From: Candidatus Avidehalobacter gallistercoris
GTDB lineage: Bacteria > Bacillota > Dehalobacteriia > UBA4068 > UBA4997
Reading direction: 5' to 3'
Assembly (NCBI GenBank): GCA_018715045.1
Contig: DVMH01000029.1
Location: 1-55,374, forward strand
Length of the DNA stretch: 55,374 nt
Of the stretch, positions 29,608 to 35,171 are shown piece after piece. Position numbers and translations under genes: made by a program. Numbering within the stretch: the stretch's first letter is position 1; each line of letters opens with the position of its first letter. Below the pieces are notes generated by a model. That model was not told where the DNA came from. It was given only the letters and a program-made list of their open reading frames with translations, and did no database searches.

Positions 29608-29684
29608 GGAGGCGTAGCTCAGTTGGTTAGAGTGCTTGCTTGACATGCAAGAGGTCACTGGTTCGATTCCAGTCGTCTCCACCA
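29608..29684 (+). tRNA. tRNA-Val (anticodon GAC)
   Basis: 77 nt including an encoded CCA. The acceptor arms GGAGGCG/CGTCTCC pair with one G·U. The anticodon stem CTTGC/GCAAG holds the loop TTGACAT, anticodon GAC. The T-loop GTTCGATTC is canonical. It has its own promoter and terminator. Confidence 0.95.
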
Positions 29685-29694
29685 AAAAACAGTG

Positions 29695-29728
29695 AAACGC
29701 CCTGATACTGCAGTATTGGGGCGTTTTT
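29695..29728 (+). terminator. Terminator after tRNA-Val
   Basis: AAACGCCC pairs with GGGCGTTT around an inner GATACTGCAGTAT hairpin, then TTTTT. Confidence 0.9.
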
Positions 29729-30041
29729 GTTTTGTTCTTACACGATTTTATTTACAATGTTCCAAATTGATTTTGTGTTCTTGTTTGCAAGTTGTGAATG
29801 ATAGTATGAATACCACAAGTAAATAGTAAGAGGAGTCCTGTTTATTGTGATTTCTCATTCTGCCTGTCCGCTCCATAAAGTGAGGAAGGGCGGGAAGCGG
29901 CGCAGCAATTTGCCAGAGAAAACAACGCCGCCGACAGGCTGAAATGATGTAGATTTGTTCATAGTCTTGTGTTATACTTTTCTCAAAGAAACAGAGCGAA
30001 AAAACGGAATTGAGATATTTAATTTTAAGGAGGACATTATT
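29729..30041. other. AT-rich gene-free stretch, left edge of accessory island
   Basis: No intact gene. A short GC-rich block (about 29861–29943) can encode KGGKRRSNLPEKTTPPTG in one frame and looks out of place in its AT-rich surroundings; it may be mobile-element debris. AAGGAGG at 30027–30033 belongs to the next gene. No copy of the tRNA 3' end was seen downstream, so integration at tRNA-Val is not shown. Confidence 0.35.
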
Positions 30042-30605
30042 ATGCTGTCAGAAGAAAGAAAAAAAGAGCTTAATGCTCTAATAGAGCGTGCGTCTTGTGC
30101 TGGAGATGAATATTATTTCGATATGGAACAAGATGAGTTTGACGAGGAAATGGAAGGATGTGAAGATGAAGAATTTTACAAAGGGTTCTGCCGCCAAAGA
30201 GAAATAGGGTTTGAGGCTTATCAAAAGGAGATTGCTGAATTATTTACGCATATCACGTCTGCCGAAGAACTCCATTACATGATTGCAGATTATAATTATG
30301 ATGATGGAATGTTTACAGTTGAACAGATTGTAATGAATCCTGCTTGCGATATAGTTACCGCCAAAATGGTGTACTGGCTTTGCCAGCCGAGATATTATTA
30401 TGATAATTATGGTAGTCCGTCAAAGTGTAGTGAAGAAGATGTGAACCGAGATGTGGCGTTACTCTTAACAAAAATGGAGGCAAAAGCTATTTCGAATGGC
30501 TTCCAGACTGGACTTGAATGGAATGGAGAATTAGTTGATGAACAACTCGATAATCTTGATTTCACACAGGAGCCATATTGCCATGTGCCTGTAGAATTTA
30601 GATAA
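30042..30605 (+). CDS. DUF4274 domain protein
   Basis: A 187-residue acidic cytoplasmic protein. The central SAEELHYMIADYNYDDG followed by NPACDIVTAKMVYWL is the DUF4274 signature; the domain's function is unknown and it often occurs singly in accessory regions, sometimes suggested as immunity-like. ATG 30042 has AAGGAGG 8 nt upstream; an open frame extends upstream to 29955 but lacks an SD. Base composition is distinctly AT-richer than the core genes, in line with transfer. Confidence 0.75.
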   Translation: MLSEERKKELNALIERASCAGDEYYFDMEQDEFDEEMEGCEDEEFYKGFCRQREIGFEAYQKEIAELFTHITSAEELHYMIADYNYDDGMFTVEQIVMNPACDIVTAKMVYWLCQPRYYYDNYGSPSKCSEEDVNRDVALLLTKMEAKAISNGFQTGLEWNGELVDEQLDNLDFTQEPYCHVPVEFR

Positions 30606-30720
30606 TAATTTTCCTTGATCGAGCAACACACAGTAAAACTAAATAAACTACCCATCACGAACAGCCAAGAAAATCGACTGTCCTTTTTCTATGCTGACAG
30701 GCGGAAAGGAGCGACTCACT

Positions 30721-30867
30721 ATGACGAAACGGAGAGAGAAACCCCGCCAGGAGTTGACCGCCGCTCCTCTGGAATTGGACGGGATAAAGCGGCGTTGGCA
30801 GCCATTTCTTGAACGTCTGCCGGAGTACCGGATGATTTATGAAGAAATCCTGTTCGGGAAGAAGTAA
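30721..30867 (+). CDS. Small basic protein, 48 residues, unknown
   Basis: ATG 30721 to TAA 30865–30867, with AAAGGAG 9 nt upstream, so translation is plausible. The product is basic at the N-terminus (MTKRREKPRQELTAAPLELD) and ends MIYEEILFGKK. Its GC content is higher than that of the neighbouring island genes, suggesting a separate origin such as a conjugative-transposon fragment. No function can be given. Confidence 0.5.
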   Translation: MTKRREKPRQELTAAPLELDGIKRRWQPFLERLPEYRMIYEEILFGKK

Positions 30868-30941
30868 TCTCATACCGAAGTATCAGGAGCATTAAAGTGC
30901 TTCTGACACTTTTTCGTCGATATTTTGGCTGGAAAAGACTT

Positions 30942-30971
30942 TTGGGAAGGAGATACAGAGTATAATATAAT
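30942..30971 (+). promoter_or_regulatory. Promoter of nucleoside-phosphorylase-like gene
   Basis: TTGGGA (30942–30947), an 18-bp spacer, then TATAAT (30966–30971); an overlapping second TATAAT starts at 30961. It argues against the ATG at 30974. Confidence 0.5.
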
Positions 30972-31003
30972 AAATGGATTTTATATTAGATGGGGTGAGG
31001 ATT

Positions 31004-32044
31004 ATGTATCGTTATCCTATAGACAATTTAGAGAAGCTTTCAAGACCTTTTGCGGTTAGTCCGGAAGATCATTCAATGGGGAATTCTTTAGTTCAATATA
31101 TGGGAATTAAAATTCACCCGCTACTAAAAGAATATAATTATGAGAAAATTGTAGTGCAGGGGAAATTTGACCGTTCCTCCGGAATATCTTATAAAGAGAA
31201 AACTAATAAATTGTTTAACTATATTCGTCCTACTGCTCAGATTAGTGACGAAATACTATATTTAAATTGTTTTCCGGGATTAGATTATGTCTTTCACTAT
31301 GGGAATGTTATAAAATCCTATCTTTCTTTAATGCAAAAGCCTTGCAACGTCTCAGGCATACTTCCTTCGGAAGAAGTATGTTGGACGGCTATAGCAGAAT
31401 CTGATTTAAAGTCTGTGCCTAAGTCGCATACAGTAATTATGGGGTATGTTGAGGGGTTGCAAAACATATCTTCCGATACTATATGGCATGGTACTGGTAA
31501 TTTTTTGTGGAAAAGTGTCTGTTTATCCTCCGGTGATGCCATTCTTCTTGGATGCAAGCATACATATTGGGGAGAAATTGCTGGAAGAATTGTATGCTAT
31601 TTGGCGTTAAATGGAGTCAAAAGAATTATATATTCTGGGAAATTAGGAACTTTAAATCCTAATTTAATTCCCAATTTAACAATTGCCACAGGCAATTCTA
31701 GCATTTTACCAAATGGGAAAGTCATAGAGTGGGATAATCTATTTGACGGTATAACTGACTCCCAAATATATTATGGTAGGCACATAACAGTGCCATCTGT
31801 CATGCAAGAAACAAAAAAATGGTTAAAAGCTAATTGCGGTGTGGCTGATTTTGTTGATCCAGAAATTGGACATATGGCACTTGCTGCTGCAAATTATGGT
31901 GTTGAATTTTCGTACTTACATATCATCTCAGATAATTTATCACACAAGTATGAATTTGATCTTTCAAACGAAAGAAAAACTACAGTAATACAAAATAGAA
32001 GTACTCTATTTAGAAAAATTAGAGAAGCAATTACGCGCCTTTAG
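31004..32044 (+). CDS. Nucleoside phosphorylase-like protein
   Basis: The C-terminal half (about residues 175–330) resembles the phosphorylase/nucleosidase fold: GVKRIIYSGKLGTLNP is the usual strand-glycine loop, NLTIATGNSSI a following strand, and FVDPEIGHMALAAANYGVEF occupies the place of the substrate-binding Met-Glu segment. The first 150 residues match nothing I recognise. I use ATG 31004 (GGGGTGAGG just upstream), because ATG 30974 lies at or before the likely transcription start. This gives 346 residues. No neighbouring purine genes occur; a defence or nucleotide-signal role is speculation. Confidence 0.6.
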   Translation: MYRYPIDNLEKLSRPFAVSPEDHSMGNSLVQYMGIKIHPLLKEYNYEKIVVQGKFDRSSGISYKEKTNKLFNYIRPTAQISDEILYLNCFPGLDYVFHYGNVIKSYLSLMQKPCNVSGILPSEEVCWTAIAESDLKSVPKSHTVIMGYVEGLQNISSDTIWHGTGNFLWKSVCLSSGDAILLGCKHTYWGEIAGRIVCYLALNGVKRIIYSGKLGTLNPNLIPNLTIATGNSSILPNGKVIEWDNLFDGITDSQIYYGRHITVPSVMQETKKWLKANCGVADFVDPEIGHMALAAANYGVEFSYLHIISDNLSHKYEFDLSNERKTTVIQNRSTLFRKIREAITRL

Positions 32045-32138
32045 ATTATGGGATTGCTCATTTATAGAAAAATTGCTCTTTAATAGATAGACTTGCAAGT
32101 TGAAAACAAATCTATTTATTAAAGGAGAGATGAAAATT

Positions 32139-32363
32139 ATGAGTCAATATGATGAATATGCCAAATTGGTTAGGGGTACAACTCGTGATACTACTACCAG
32201 GGGATTTCAGGCAAAATTGACTTTGCCTAGTTCTGTAACATTGCCGAGGACGGGCGATTATTATTGTTTTAGCAATTATATAATATATGTAATATCAATA
32301 TTGGTTCTGCGAGGTGATATTATGGATAAAAAAAGAAATATCGCTCTTTGTGCAGAAGCTTAG
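32139..32363 (+). CDS. Small protein with LPxTG-like C-terminal arrangement, unknown
   Basis: 74 residues. AAAGGAG (32121–32127) precedes ATG 32139. Residues 35–39 read LPRTG, then a hydrophobic stretch (NYIIYVISILVL) and a charged tail (RGDIMDKKR), the order of a sortase sorting signal. No N-terminal signal peptide is seen, which argues against surface display; a short membrane or precursor peptide is as likely. Its end overlaps the XRE gene in another frame. Confidence 0.4.
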   Translation: MSQYDEYAKLVRGTTRDTTTRGFQAKLTLPSSVTLPRTGDYYCFSNYIIYVISILVLRGDIMDKKRNIALCAEA

Positions 32364-32568
32364 AAAAGTTTTTTCTAATAACTTGGCTGTTTGCAGAAAA
32401 AATCAAGGTTACACACAGGAAAAAATATCGGAAATGGTAGGCATTAGTCAGGCTTTTTATTCGCAAGTTGAACTTGGTAACAATTTAGTTGGATTACCAG
32501 TTTTAATGAAGTTGACTAATGTTCTTGATGTTAGTGCTAATACATTATACGGACAGCTTGCAAAATGA
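32314..32568 (+). CDS. XRE-family helix-turn-helix regulator, start uncertain
   Basis: The HTH is clear: NNLAVCRKNQGYTQEKISEM followed by VGISQAFYSQVELGNNLVGL. With GTG 32314 the protein is 84 residues but that start overlaps the SD (GAGG 32311–32314). The best-spaced start, ATG 32322, reads MDKKRN and stops soon after; removing one A from the A7 run at 32328–32334 would give MDKKEISLFVQKLR and join the HTH frame. A frameshift, slippage or sequencing error in the run is therefore likely. It probably controls the island genes. Confidence 0.7.
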   Translation: MILWIKKEISLFVQKLRKVFSNNLAVCRKNQGYTQEKISEMVGISQAFYSQVELGNNLVGLPVLMKLTNVLDVSANTLYGQLAK

Positions 32569-32931
32569 AGATATGATTGATATAAGTAAGCCTGTTATGA
32601 TGTTATCCAATAGGTCAGAAAGATAAATTACTTTGATAACAAGACTAAAGACGCCGTACTTGCTGCCTGACGGAAAGGACAGCAGGAGCCTGTTATTTGC
32701 GTTTTCTAGCGCCAGACTCTGGTGATGAGTTGTTGTATCGACCGTTTTTCATTACTGCGATAACATACCCCAAGTTTATGTGGTGCCGTTTTGATGGAGA
32801 TGAAGAAACGACGCCAGTATGGGCGGATTTTACCGTTAAACTACGCGAGGTTAAGCCCAATGATTGAAAGCAGCCCGGCCTATAAACAGGCTATTTGTGG
32901 AGATGCAAGAAGAGTTTTCGCCCAAAATGAT

Positions 32932-32978
32932 AAAGAACGCCCAAGCGGTGTGCTTGCGGGGTTCTTTCTTATTTTTTG
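32932..32978 (+). terminator. Terminator-like hairpin in the island
   Basis: AAAGAAC (32932–32938) pairs with GTTCTTT (32961–32967) around an imperfect CCCAAGC/GCTTGCGGG inner stem, followed by CTTATTTTTT. Confidence 0.65.
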
Positions 32979-33140
32979 TACATGGTTTTTACACGGACAA
33001 ATACCGGTTAATTCATGGTGTATAGGTTCTGTGAGCGCCTGGATATCTCAAACAGCTCTTGGGCTGTTCTAATGTTCATATATCGGCCATTACTTTCGTT
33101 TTTTGTATATATTTTCATCTAATTGTAGCGTTAAGCTTTA

Positions 33141-33210: not shown

Positions 33211-33337
33211 ATGGGCATAGTTGATGTGGCAGCTATATTGTTTATAGAAAAATAAATATCGGTGAGGAACTTTTCTCATGTGCGATTGTTTGAATCAAAT
33301 TTATTGCCGAATTTTTCGATAAAGGATCGTGTTCGTT

Positions 33338-34006
33338 ATGAAAAAATACTTTTTGGGGATAGTCGCTTTAGTCTTGCTGTTTGCTCTGACAAGCTGCGCA
33401 GGTTCTGATCAGAATGATACTTCAACAAGCAGTCAAGGAAACGACAATGTGCAGACAGGTAATTCATTGTCAACGGAGGCGGAAAATGGCGACTCTGCTG
33501 AAAGTACTGAACCTGAAATATTGGTGGCCTATTTTTCGGCTACTAACAATACAGCTGGAATAGCGGCGGATATTGCCGAAAGCCTGGATGCTGATCTATA
33601 TGCCATTACACCAGCAGAAGCCTATACGGCGGCGGATTTAGACTATAACAATGACAACAGCCGTACCAGTATCGAAATGAACGATCCGGATTCCCGTCCG
33701 GCTATTGGCGGCGACAGCGTGGAAAACATGGCCGACTATAATATTGTGTTTATAGGCTATCCGATTTGGTGGGGGCAGGCGCCGCGCATCATCAGTAGCT
33801 TTATGGAAAGCTATGATTTCAGCGGCAAAACTATCGTACCTTTTTGTACATCCGGCAGCAGCGATATCGGTTCCAGCGCCGCCAACCTTCAGACTCTGAC
33901 CGTAGATGCGGTTTGGCTGGCCGGGCAGCGCTTCAGCAGTAATGCTTCACATGATTCTATTGTGGAATGGCTGAACAGTTTGGCAATTAACGTCAGCGCA
34001 GAATAA
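33338..34006 (+). CDS. Flavodoxin-domain lipoprotein
   Basis: A lipoprotein signal (VALVLLFALTSCAG, lipid Cys at residue 20) is followed by a Ser/Thr/Asn-rich linker to about residue 65 and a flavodoxin domain to the end. The FMN-phosphate loop is YFSATNNT (the classic Gly replaced by Asn), with NSRTSIEMNDPDSRPAI, FIGYPIWWGQAPRII and PFCTSGSSDIGSS as further flavodoxin hallmarks. ATG 33338 follows AAAGGA by 11 nt. The protein should be membrane-anchored outside the cytoplasm and carry electrons. The next gene encodes a close sister domain, so a duplication is evident. Confidence 0.85.
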   Translation: MKKYFLGIVALVLLFALTSCAGSDQNDTSTSSQGNDNVQTGNSLSTEAENGDSAESTEPEILVAYFSATNNTAGIAADIAESLDADLYAITPAEAYTAADLDYNNDNSRTSIEMNDPDSRPAIGGDSVENMADYNIVFIGYPIWWGQAPRIISSFMESYDFSGKTIVPFCTSGSSDIGSSAANLQTLTVDAVWLAGQRFSSNASHDSIVEWLNSLAINVSAE

Positions 34007-34085
34007 AAATGTACGTCTTTTCTGTTTGCAAATTGCTGCCAAAGCCGTAAATTGATCTAAATAAATTAAAAGGAGACTGATTAAA

Positions 34086-35171
34086 ATGTTGAAAAAGTTG
34101 CCAATGAACAGAACCAGATTGAACATAATATTGTTCTTTTGCACGATTTTGACTTTTATTTTGCCTGCAACTGCTTGGGCTGCGGTTGAGGACACCGGCT
34201 TTTCTGATGTGAAGGCCGACGCTTGGTATGCCGACGCCGTTGTGTATTGCCGGGAAAACGGTTTGATGAATGGCAATTCGGCTACCGAATTTGACCCGGA
34301 AGACAGTTTGACCAGAGCCATGTTGGTTACAGTGCTTTATCGTCTGGAGGGTGAACCGGTGGTTGACGGTGACGATGGCTTCAGTGACACGACTGATGGA
34401 CAGTGGTACAGCGACGCTGTTTTATGGGCCATGCAGCAGAGCATAGTTAATGGTTATGGCGAAGGGCTTTTTGGACCCAATGATGCGATCACACAGGAAC
34501 AACTGAATCTGATTATGAGCCGGTATACTGAAGAGGCTGTGACGCAGGATATTCCCACCTTTACCGGCGACGCCAACCCCGCTACGCGGGCACAGGTGGC
34601 GGCAGTAATGTTGAATTTATCCACCTTTTTCCCGGGGACTTCTGCGGACGAAGAAAATGACAATCAAGGCAGTGAGCCGAAAATTCTGGTGGCATATTTC
34701 TCTGCTACCAATAATACGGAAAATGTAGCACGGCATATTGCTGCGACCCTCAATGCCGATCTTTACGAGATTACCCCGGAAACACCATATACTTCGGCAG
34801 ATTTGAACTATAACAATGCCAACAGCCGCACCAGCATTGAAATGAATGATCCTGATTCCCGCCCGGCCATTGGCAGCGACAGTGTGGCTAATATGGCTGA
34901 TTATGATACTGTGTTTATCGGATATCCGATTTGGTGGGGGCAGGCGCCGCGTATCATCAGTACATTTATGGAGACATATGATTTCAACGGTAAAACCATT
35001 GTGCCTTTCTGCACTTCTGGCAGCAGCAGTATCGGCAGCAGTGCCACTGGGCTGCATAGTTTAGCCGACGGTGCTGTTTGGCTGGATGGTCGCCGCTTCT
35101 CCGGCAGTACTTCTCAGATTGAAGTGGCCGCTTGGGTAAACGGCTTGAATTTGACGGCAGCAGGCAAATAA
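34086..35171 (+). CDS. Secreted SLH-domain–flavodoxin fusion protein
   Basis: A signal peptide (IILFFCTILTFILPATAWA) leads into two S-layer homology repeats (FSDVKADAWYADAVVYC near residue 39; FSDTTDGQWYSDAVLWA near 99), a degenerate third repeat, then a flavodoxin domain from about residue 198 (ILVAYFSATNNT to the C-terminus). SLH repeats bind cell-wall polymers, so the flavodoxin would be displayed on the wall. The domain is nearly the same as in the preceding lipoprotein. AAAAGGAG precedes ATG 34086; the 79-nt gap and single promoter suggest cotranscription. SLH–flavodoxin fusions are unusual. Confidence 0.88.
   Translation: MLKKLPMNRTRLNIILFFCTILTFILPATAWAAVEDTGFSDVKADAWYADAVVYCRENGLMNGNSATEFDPEDSLTRAMLVTVLYRLEGEPVVDGDDGFSDTTDGQWYSDAVLWAMQQSIVNGYGEGLFGPNDAITQEQLNLIMSRYTEEAVTQDIPTFTGDANPATRAQVAAVMLNLSTFFPGTSADEENDNQGSEPKILVAYFSATNNTENVARHIAATLNADLYEITPETPYTSADLNYNNANSRTSIEMNDPDSRPAIGSDSVANMADYDTVFIGYPIWWGQAPRIISTFMETYDFNGKTIVPFCTSGSSSIGSSATGLHSLADGAVWLDGRRFSGSTSQIEVAAWVNGLNLTAAGK

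What the first reader, a model, noticed from the sequence alone, without database searches (positions are those of the whole stretch)
31004..32044. Nucleoside-phosphorylase-like protein with an unassigned N-terminal half, next to a small protein and an XRE regulator
The C-terminal half shows phosphorylase-fold features (IIYSGKLGTLNP; VDPEIGHMALAA), while the first 150 residues are unfamiliar. It shares an island with a 74-residue ORF and a regulator. Nucleosidase-fold domains act as effectors in several phage-defence systems, so a small nucleotide-sensing or defence cassette is possible. Only the fold resemblance comes from the sequence.
Basis: partly seen in the sequence, partly recalled or inferred. 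Interest (0 to 1): 0.55.

Follow-up and report, generated by a model that had tools for sequence, protein, structure and literature searches.

The report
Mobile nucleosidase-like gene of unknown substrate
A bacterium has picked up, at a tRNA gene where mobile DNA likes to insert, an intact gene for a rare enzyme that probably snips the base off a purine nucleoside or nucleotide; its closest relatives sit in plasmid gene clusters for altered DNA bases, so a role in nucleotide or DNA-base chemistry fits at least as well as phage defence.

Summary
The ORF is real: 346 aa, 31004-32044. It belongs to an unnamed, rare subfamily of the purine/uridine phosphorylase (NP-I, PF01048) superfamily, with full-length relatives on 4 Streptomyces plasmids (38-39% identity) and Klebsiella plasmids (about 26%), and a broken copy in a Clostridia MAG. 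One relative passes Pfam's cut-off; the window protein alone does not. Catalytic Glu287 and Asp310 are kept, but Lys replaces the phosphorylase phosphate-binding Ser, which suggests a hydrolase. The 'unassigned' N-terminal half is as conserved as the C-terminal half; its fold stays unassigned. The gene lies in a 3.2-kb, 37% GC insertion at tRNA-Val, the site a 16-kb integrative element uses in the nearest relative. The XRE ORF is frame-offset from its natural start and the 74-aa ORF looks truncated, so the proposed regulated cassette is weak. In all 4 Streptomyces loci the gene sits between a DpdA-like transglycosylase and a kinase in a FolE-QueD-QueE (7-deazaguanine) cluster; the broken Clostridia copy adjoins an HD-CE/HATPase gene. 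I favour a mobile nucleoside/nucleotide N-glycosidase tied to nucleotide-base chemistry; a defence effector is possible but unshown. Nothing was tested biochemically.

The parts
31004..32044 (+). P0001, NP-I (PNP/UDP phosphorylase) superfamily protein, 346 aa: N-terminal unit about 18-138, NP-I core about 139-346; E287 and D310 at the catalytic Glu/Asp positions, K213 at the phosphorylase Ser position
29608..29684 (+). tRNA-Val (GAC), attachment site; left border of the insertion
29689..32921 (.). about 3.2-kb low-GC insertion (GC about 37%, window 52%) relative to the nearest relative; the tRNA terminator that follows attR in the relative is displaced to about 32922-32995
30051..30605 (+). 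ORF with DUF4274 domain inside the insertion (43.7 bits, cut-off 27)
32139..32363 (+).
32314..32568 (+). XRE-type HTH regulator ORF (PF01381, 41.4 bits); its natural ATG (32322) is out of frame, offset at a run of seven A at 32328-32334

Best explanation
P0001 is a horizontally acquired, intact member of a rare, unnamed NP-I subfamily and most likely cleaves the N-glycosidic bond of a purine nucleoside or nucleotide (inferred): Glu287 would hold the ribose, Asp310 would protonate the base, and the lack of the phosphorylase Ser suggests hydrolysis rather than phosphorolysis. The N-terminal ~135 residues are not a loose sensor but a conserved part of the enzyme that probably shapes the substrate site (inferred). 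In Streptomyces plasmids the family works inside a 7-deazaguanine base cluster, directly between a DpdA-like base-exchange enzyme and an NMP-kinase-like protein, where it would release or exchange the base of (7-deaza)guanine nucleosides or nucleotides (inferred). In the window the gene has been carried as cargo into tRNA-Val (insertion shown; role there inferred): an accessory nucleotide-processing enzyme of a mobile element. Shown: family membership, conservation, insertion, neighbourhoods. Not shown: activity, substrate, expression.
For: Relatives: tblastn of P0001 hits 9 of 72,556 plasmid records, 4 Streptomyces (38-39%, 93-98% covered) and 5 Klebsiella (26%, 72-93% covered). PF01048: relative L003 26.5 bits over the cut-off 25.1, 5 of 6 members at E<=1. 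Motif alignment with E. coli Mtn, DeoD and Amn and a Bacteroides AMP nucleosidase: Glu in 6 of 6, Asp in window and Klebsiella, Asn in 4 of 4 Streptomyces, Lys in 6 of 6 at the Ser position, as in the Bacteroides AMP nucleosidase. Structure: VIA list all NP-I, Z up to 6.6. Context: FolE, QueD, QueE, DpdA-like, TMK-like, DUF2797 and methyltransferase in 4 of 4 Streptomyces loci (annotations); DpdA-like vs phage DpdA hhalign 99.4%, E 4.9e-21. Insertion at tRNA-Val.
Against: P0001's own Pfam score is below cut-off. The only usable model is poor (pLDDT 48.7, pTM 0.47) and no Foldseek match reaches E 0.001 (best 1.6e-3). The window has no que, dpd or kinase partner: of 18 query proteins (16 partners, plus the NP-I and XRE proteins themselves) only the last two matched the window. 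The 3 phage dpd loci read lack the gene, so it is no fixed part of such clusters. Klebsiella (transporter-NUDIX-aminotransferase) and the Clostridia MAG (HD-CE/HATPase) have other contexts. The profile comparison with AMP nucleosidase is not significant. The Asp/Asn split rests on 7 sequences.
Confidence: 0.5

Rival explanations
1. It is a phage-defence effector: a nucleotide nucleosidase that, once triggered, destroys a purine nucleotide pool, as the ATP-cleaving PNP effectors of Detocs and CBASS do.
For: Mobile, low-GC insertion at a tRNA hotspot; very patchy distribution (only the query's own genome in 61, 43 and 398 genomes searched); the Clostridia relative is followed by HD-CE and HATPase_c_3 genes, and of three plasmid relatives of that ATPase one lies beside a type I restriction system.
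Against: No PADLOC match; no SLOG domain; no sensor partner in the insertion; 4 of 4 Streptomyces relatives sit in a base-biosynthesis cluster; 0 of 3 other HATPase loci carry the gene, so that link is a single case.
Confidence: 0.22
2. It is an ordinary purine salvage nucleosidase or phosphorylase that happens to be divergent.
For: Catalytic Glu/Asp kept; all listed structural neighbours are NP-I enzymes, mostly of salvage.
Against: Absent from the 8 other genomes of the genus and from 397 of 398 genomes of the phylum sample; lies in a mobile insertion; relatives are on plasmids; long conserved N-terminal unit without a match in Pfam, NCBIfam or PHROGs.
Confidence: 0.18
3. It is decaying cargo of a dead mobile element with no current function.
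For: The XRE ORF is frame-offset and the 74-aa ORF looks truncated; no second attachment copy remains in the window; the Clostridia relative is itself broken by stops and frameshifts.
Against: P0001 is fully open over 346 codons (about 1e-12 by chance), has a ribosome-binding-like GGGGTGAGG before ATG 31004 and keeps the catalytic residues.
Confidence: 0.1

Closest known systems
NP-I superfamily (PF01048: PNP, uridine phosphorylase, MTA/SAH nucleosidase)
   Same: C-terminal core, GxxG glycine motif, catalytic Glu287 and Asp310
   Different: extra conserved ~135-aa N-terminal unit; insertion-like KHTYWGE motif in the first glycine loop; Lys213 in place of the phosphate-binding Ser
AMP nucleosidase (Amn; E. 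coli type with PF10423 and short Bacteroides type)
   Same: NP-I core preceded by an N-terminal domain (E. coli type); Lys at the GKxG position as in Bacteroides AMP nucleosidase; PDB 1ybf is VIA rank 3, tied with its neighbours
   Different: no PF10423 match; profile comparison no better than column shuffles; much shorter than the E. coli type
PNP effectors of Detocs/CBASS (Cap17)
   Same: NP-I core, mobile location
   Different: no TIR/PNP-associating SLOG domain, no PADLOC hit, no sensor partner; known activity on ATP read in passages of PMC11249213 and PMC10952713
7-deazaguanine DNA-modification (dpd / phage FolE-QueD-QueE-DpdA) clusters
   Same: Streptomyces relatives are embedded in such a cluster between a DpdA-like gene and a TMK-like gene
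   Different: the window has none of these partner genes; three phage clusters read lack the NP-I gene; passages of PMC11888242 on bacterial dpd islands name no such enzyme

Membership tests
NP-I superfamily (PF01048) | profile homology over the curated cut-off | tested here: met
   met through the 38%-identical relative L003 (26.5 vs 25.1 bits); P0001 itself 13 bits, below the cut-off; 5 of 6 members at E<=1
NP-I superfamily (PF01048) | catalytic ribose-binding Glu and base-site Asp/Asn | tested here: met
   E287 in 6 of 6; position 310 Asp in P0001 and Klebsiella, Asn in 4 of 4 Streptomyces
NP-I superfamily (PF01048) | NP-I fold | tested here: inconclusive
   poor model (pLDDT 48.7); 50 of 50 VIA rows are NP-I enzymes, Z 6.0-6.6; best Foldseek E 1.6e-3
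Nucleoside phosphorylase proper | phosphate-binding Ser of the VGSxG motif | tested here: not met
   Lys213 in 6 of 6 members; the role of the Ser is recalled
AMP nucleosidase (Amn, E. coli type) | N-terminal AMNp_N domain (PF10423) | tested here: not met
   no Pfam match at E<=10; local hhalign score 15.0 lies within column-shuffle decoys (60 made, top values 17.8, 16.7, 15.3, 15.1)
Detocs/CBASS PNP effector (Cap17) | SLOG domain (PF18178) joined to the PNP domain | tested here: not met
   only PNP_UDP_1 listed at E<=10
Detocs/CBASS PNP effector (Cap17) | signalling partner genes in the same operon | tested here: not met
   flanking ORFs are DUF4274, a 58-aa ORF, the 74-aa ORF and the XRE ORF
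Detocs/CBASS PNP effector (Cap17) | cleavage of (d)ATP | not testable with these tools
   needs an enzyme assay
7-deazaguanine DNA-modification cluster | que/dpd genes beside the gene | tested here: not met
   not in the window; met for 4 of 4 Streptomyces relatives
Regulator-controlled cassette with the XRE gene | intact regulator in operon with P0001 | tested here: inconclusive
   HTH ORF open, but its natural ATG is in another frame; an assembly error cannot be excluded

The most novel reading that the evidence does not exclude
A new nucleotide-level step of DNA-base hypermodification: an NP-I N-glycosidase that works with a DpdA-like base exchanger and an NMP kinase to swap or purge the base of free (deoxy)guanine nucleotides, so that 7-deazaguanine enters the nucleotide pool. 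The Asp-type branch (window, Clostridia, Klebsiella), found without que/dpd genes, would then be the counterpart that removes bases from the nucleotides of competing elements: a defence acting on modified or foreign nucleotides.
Probability: 0.1. Interest if true: 0.75.

Novelty: new variant of a known kind. Interest (0 to 1): 0.42.

Why it matters
If right, it adds an unrecognised enzyme type to 7-deazaguanine chemistry on plasmids and gives a direct substrate test. The family has two natural classes at the base-binding position (Asp in 3, Asn in 4 sequences) that predict substrate differences: a 7-deazapurine has no N7 to protonate, which fits Asn in the Streptomyces cluster. It also warns against calling every mobile PNP-like gene a defence effector.

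Tried and rejected
Homology of the N-terminal half to the AMP-nucleosidase N-terminal domain: attractive by eye (strand-strand-helix order), but no Pfam match and the hhalign score is inside the shuffle range; not claimed. Relatives in phages, IMG/VR viral contigs and E. coli genomes by DNA of the Klebsiella gene: none found. More relatives in genome samples: only the centre genomes themselves matched. Single-sequence AlphaFold model: useless (pLDDT 32.6). BFVD fold search: no match at E<=0.001, best hit a Moumouvirus purine phosphorylase at E 0.016. The HD-CE/HATPase partner as a conserved companion: rejected, 0 of 3 plasmid relatives read have the NP-I gene nearby (3 of the 192 records were read). 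The island as a copy of a plasmid segment: no DNA match. AMP nucleosidase PF10423 in 21 genomes of the neighbourhood: 0.

Literature: searches. Read as passages only: PMC9584410, PMC6884629, PMC11249213, PMC10952713, PMC11888242, PMC12839542. Not held: doi 10.1093/nar/gkad657, PMC10966956. I do not claim that the Streptomyces cluster is unpublished; those searches did not return it among the listed papers.

Full report
OBSERVATION. The ORF is open from ATG 31004 (or 30974) to 32044. At its base composition an open run of 346 codons has a chance near 1e-12. P0001 matches PF01048 (Phosphorylase superfamily) only at 13 bits, below the cut-off of 25.1, over residues 254-342, and nothing in PADLOC or PHROGs; NCBIfam gives only a sub-threshold phosphorylase match.

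RELATIVES. tblastn against 72,556 plasmid records gave 9 records: four Streptomyces plasmids (38-39% identity, 93-98% of the query) and five Klebsiella records (about 26%, 72-93% covered); three of the five Klebsiella copies match only the first 76% of the longer Klebsiella protein. One genome contig of an uncultured Clostridia MAG (L001) has a copy whose pieces are 48-65% identical but which is broken by frameshifts and stops. No relative was found in phage records, viral contigs or, by DNA of the Klebsiella gene, in E. coli genomes. Genome searches matched only the centre genome itself: 1 of 61, 1 of 43, 1 of 398, 1 of 397, 1 of 394. The samples overlap in part. The family is rare and patchy.

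WHAT IT IS. The Streptomyces relative L003 passes the PF01048 cut-off (26.5 bits, E 5e-6) and 5 of 6 family members match at E<=1. An alignment with E. coli Mtn, DeoD and Amn and a Bacteroides AMP nucleosidase puts VDPEIG on the catalytic 'VEMEA' motif (E287) and IISDN on 'ISD' (D310). E287 is in 6 of 6 members; position 310 is Asp in the window, in Klebsiella and in the Clostridia piece (read), and Asn in 4 of 4 Streptomyces proteins. The glycine motif reads GKLG: Lys replaces the Ser that in phosphorylases binds phosphate (recalled), and the Bacteroides AMP nucleosidase has Lys there too. PMC9584410 (passages) says that of the Amn active site only M404, E405 and D428 are conserved in its wider homologues. 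I infer a nucleosidase (hydrolase) rather than a phosphorylase.

STRUCTURE. The single-sequence model failed (pLDDT 32.6). With the Clostridia pieces the model reached pLDDT 48.7, pTM 0.47: still poor. Foldseek's best PDB rows are MTAN and uridine phosphorylase at E 1.6e-3 to about 1e-2, none under 0.001, with G proteins and others mixed below. VIA-align lists 50 entries, all NP-I enzymes (PNP, uridine or adenosine phosphorylase, AMP nucleosidase), Z 6.0-6.6, rows tied; the tool warns that Z under 8 may be a common arrangement. The fold is therefore supported mainly by sequence, and only mildly by structure. The N-terminal part was barely tested by that list.

N-TERMINAL HALF. Residues 18-138 are 40-42% identical to the Streptomyces proteins and 25% to Klebsiella, against 39-40% and 29% for residues 139-346; 21 and 28 invariant columns fall in residues 1-138 and 139-346. 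So this half is part of the enzyme, not an exchangeable sensor. A link to the AMP-nucleosidase N-terminal domain was suggested by eye and not supported.

NEIGHBOURHOODS OF RELATIVES. In L003-L005 the annotated order is QueD, QueE, FolE, a 271-273-aa hypothetical protein, the NP-I gene, a thymidylate-kinase-like protein, DUF2797, a methyltransferase, then NUDIX genes; L006, without annotation, has the same set by tblastn. No QueC is annotated within the 8-kb flanks of L003-L005. The 271-aa protein is homologous to phage DpdA: tblastn hits 18 of 50,697 phage records, several annotated 'DNA guanine transglycosylase', and hhalign against three phage proteins gives 99.4% probability, E 4.9e-21. Its annotated end overlaps the start of the NP-I gene by 4 bases in L003-L005. 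Three phage loci with the same base-synthesis genes (L042-L044) lack the NP-I gene, so it is not essential to every such cluster. Klebsiella (L007): NP-I gene, EamA transporter, NUDIX, DegT aminotransferase. Clostridia L001: the broken NP-I gene is followed by pieces of an HD-CE domain (44.9 bits for one piece, cut-off 27) and a HATPase_c_3 gene; three plasmid relatives of that ATPase, of 192 records found, were read and have no NP-I gene, and one lies beside a type I restriction system.

THE INSERTION. The gene lies in a stretch of 37% GC in a 52% window, right after tRNA-Val. In the nearest relative, G002 (flanking threonine-dehydratase-like gene 95% and alcohol-dehydrogenase-like gene 94% identical; gene names recalled from sequence), the same tRNA-Val is followed by an integrase-like ORF (named from its sequence by recall) and, 16.3 kb on, by an exact copy of the tRNA 3' part; the DNA just after that copy matches window 32922-32995 at 77%. 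So the window carries a different, about 3.2-kb insertion at the same attachment site; no second tRNA copy remains in the window. Inside it are a DUF4274 ORF, a 58-aa ORF, P0001, the 74-aa ORF and the XRE ORF. The XRE reading frame does not include its natural ATG; the 74-aa ORF runs on through that start region, and only its first 44 residues have a weak relative on a Paenibacillus plasmid, in a 690-base gene (E 0.2). Of 18 query proteins (16 partners of the relatives, plus the NP-I and XRE proteins) only the last two match the window.

MECHANISM AND VERDICT. Best supported: a mobile NP-I N-glycosidase acting on a purine nucleoside or nucleotide, with the family's clearest role in 7-deazaguanine base chemistry. 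Class of enzyme: likely; substrate: open; role in this host: open. The Asp/Asn split agrees with purine versus 7-deazapurine substrates, but on seven sequences. Defence stays possible through location and one neighbour, without direct support. Known PNP effectors cleave ATP and are joined to a SLOG family domain (PMC11249213 and PMC10952713, passages); the latter is absent here. Novelty: a new variant of a known kind (NP-I core with a conserved N-terminal unit that matches no family here, and a gene context that the searches listed did not return).

Noticed in passing
G002:C9:14783-31214 (L036, L055): About 16.3-kb integrative element with an integrase-like ORF in tRNA-Val, bounded by an exact copy of the tRNA 3' part: the same attachment site as the window insertion.
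   Followed up: partly
32322-32568: XRE-type ORF whose natural ATG is one frame away from the HTH-coding frame, at a run of seven A: frameshift, slippage site or assembly error.
   Followed up: no
33329-35171: Two flavodoxin-like genes in tandem, with a 300-nt stretch repeated at 77% identity; the second has S-layer-homology-like repeats before its flavodoxin part (recalled, not searched).
   Followed up: no
L003, L004, L005, L006: Streptomyces plasmid clusters with FolE-QueD-QueE, a DpdA-like transglycosylase, a TMK-like kinase, DUF2797 and a methyltransferase, no QueC annotated nearby: a candidate 7-deazaguanine modification system.
   Followed up: partly
L001:8001-12568: Row of broken genes: NP-I-like gene, HD-CE domain pieces, then an open HATPase_c_3 gene and a 186-aa gene; a HATPase gene followed by a 582-base gene is also on an Aliarcobacter plasmid (L058).
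   Followed up: partly
30051-30605: DUF4274 ORF with an acidic N-terminal part in the same insertion; function unknown.
   Followed up: no
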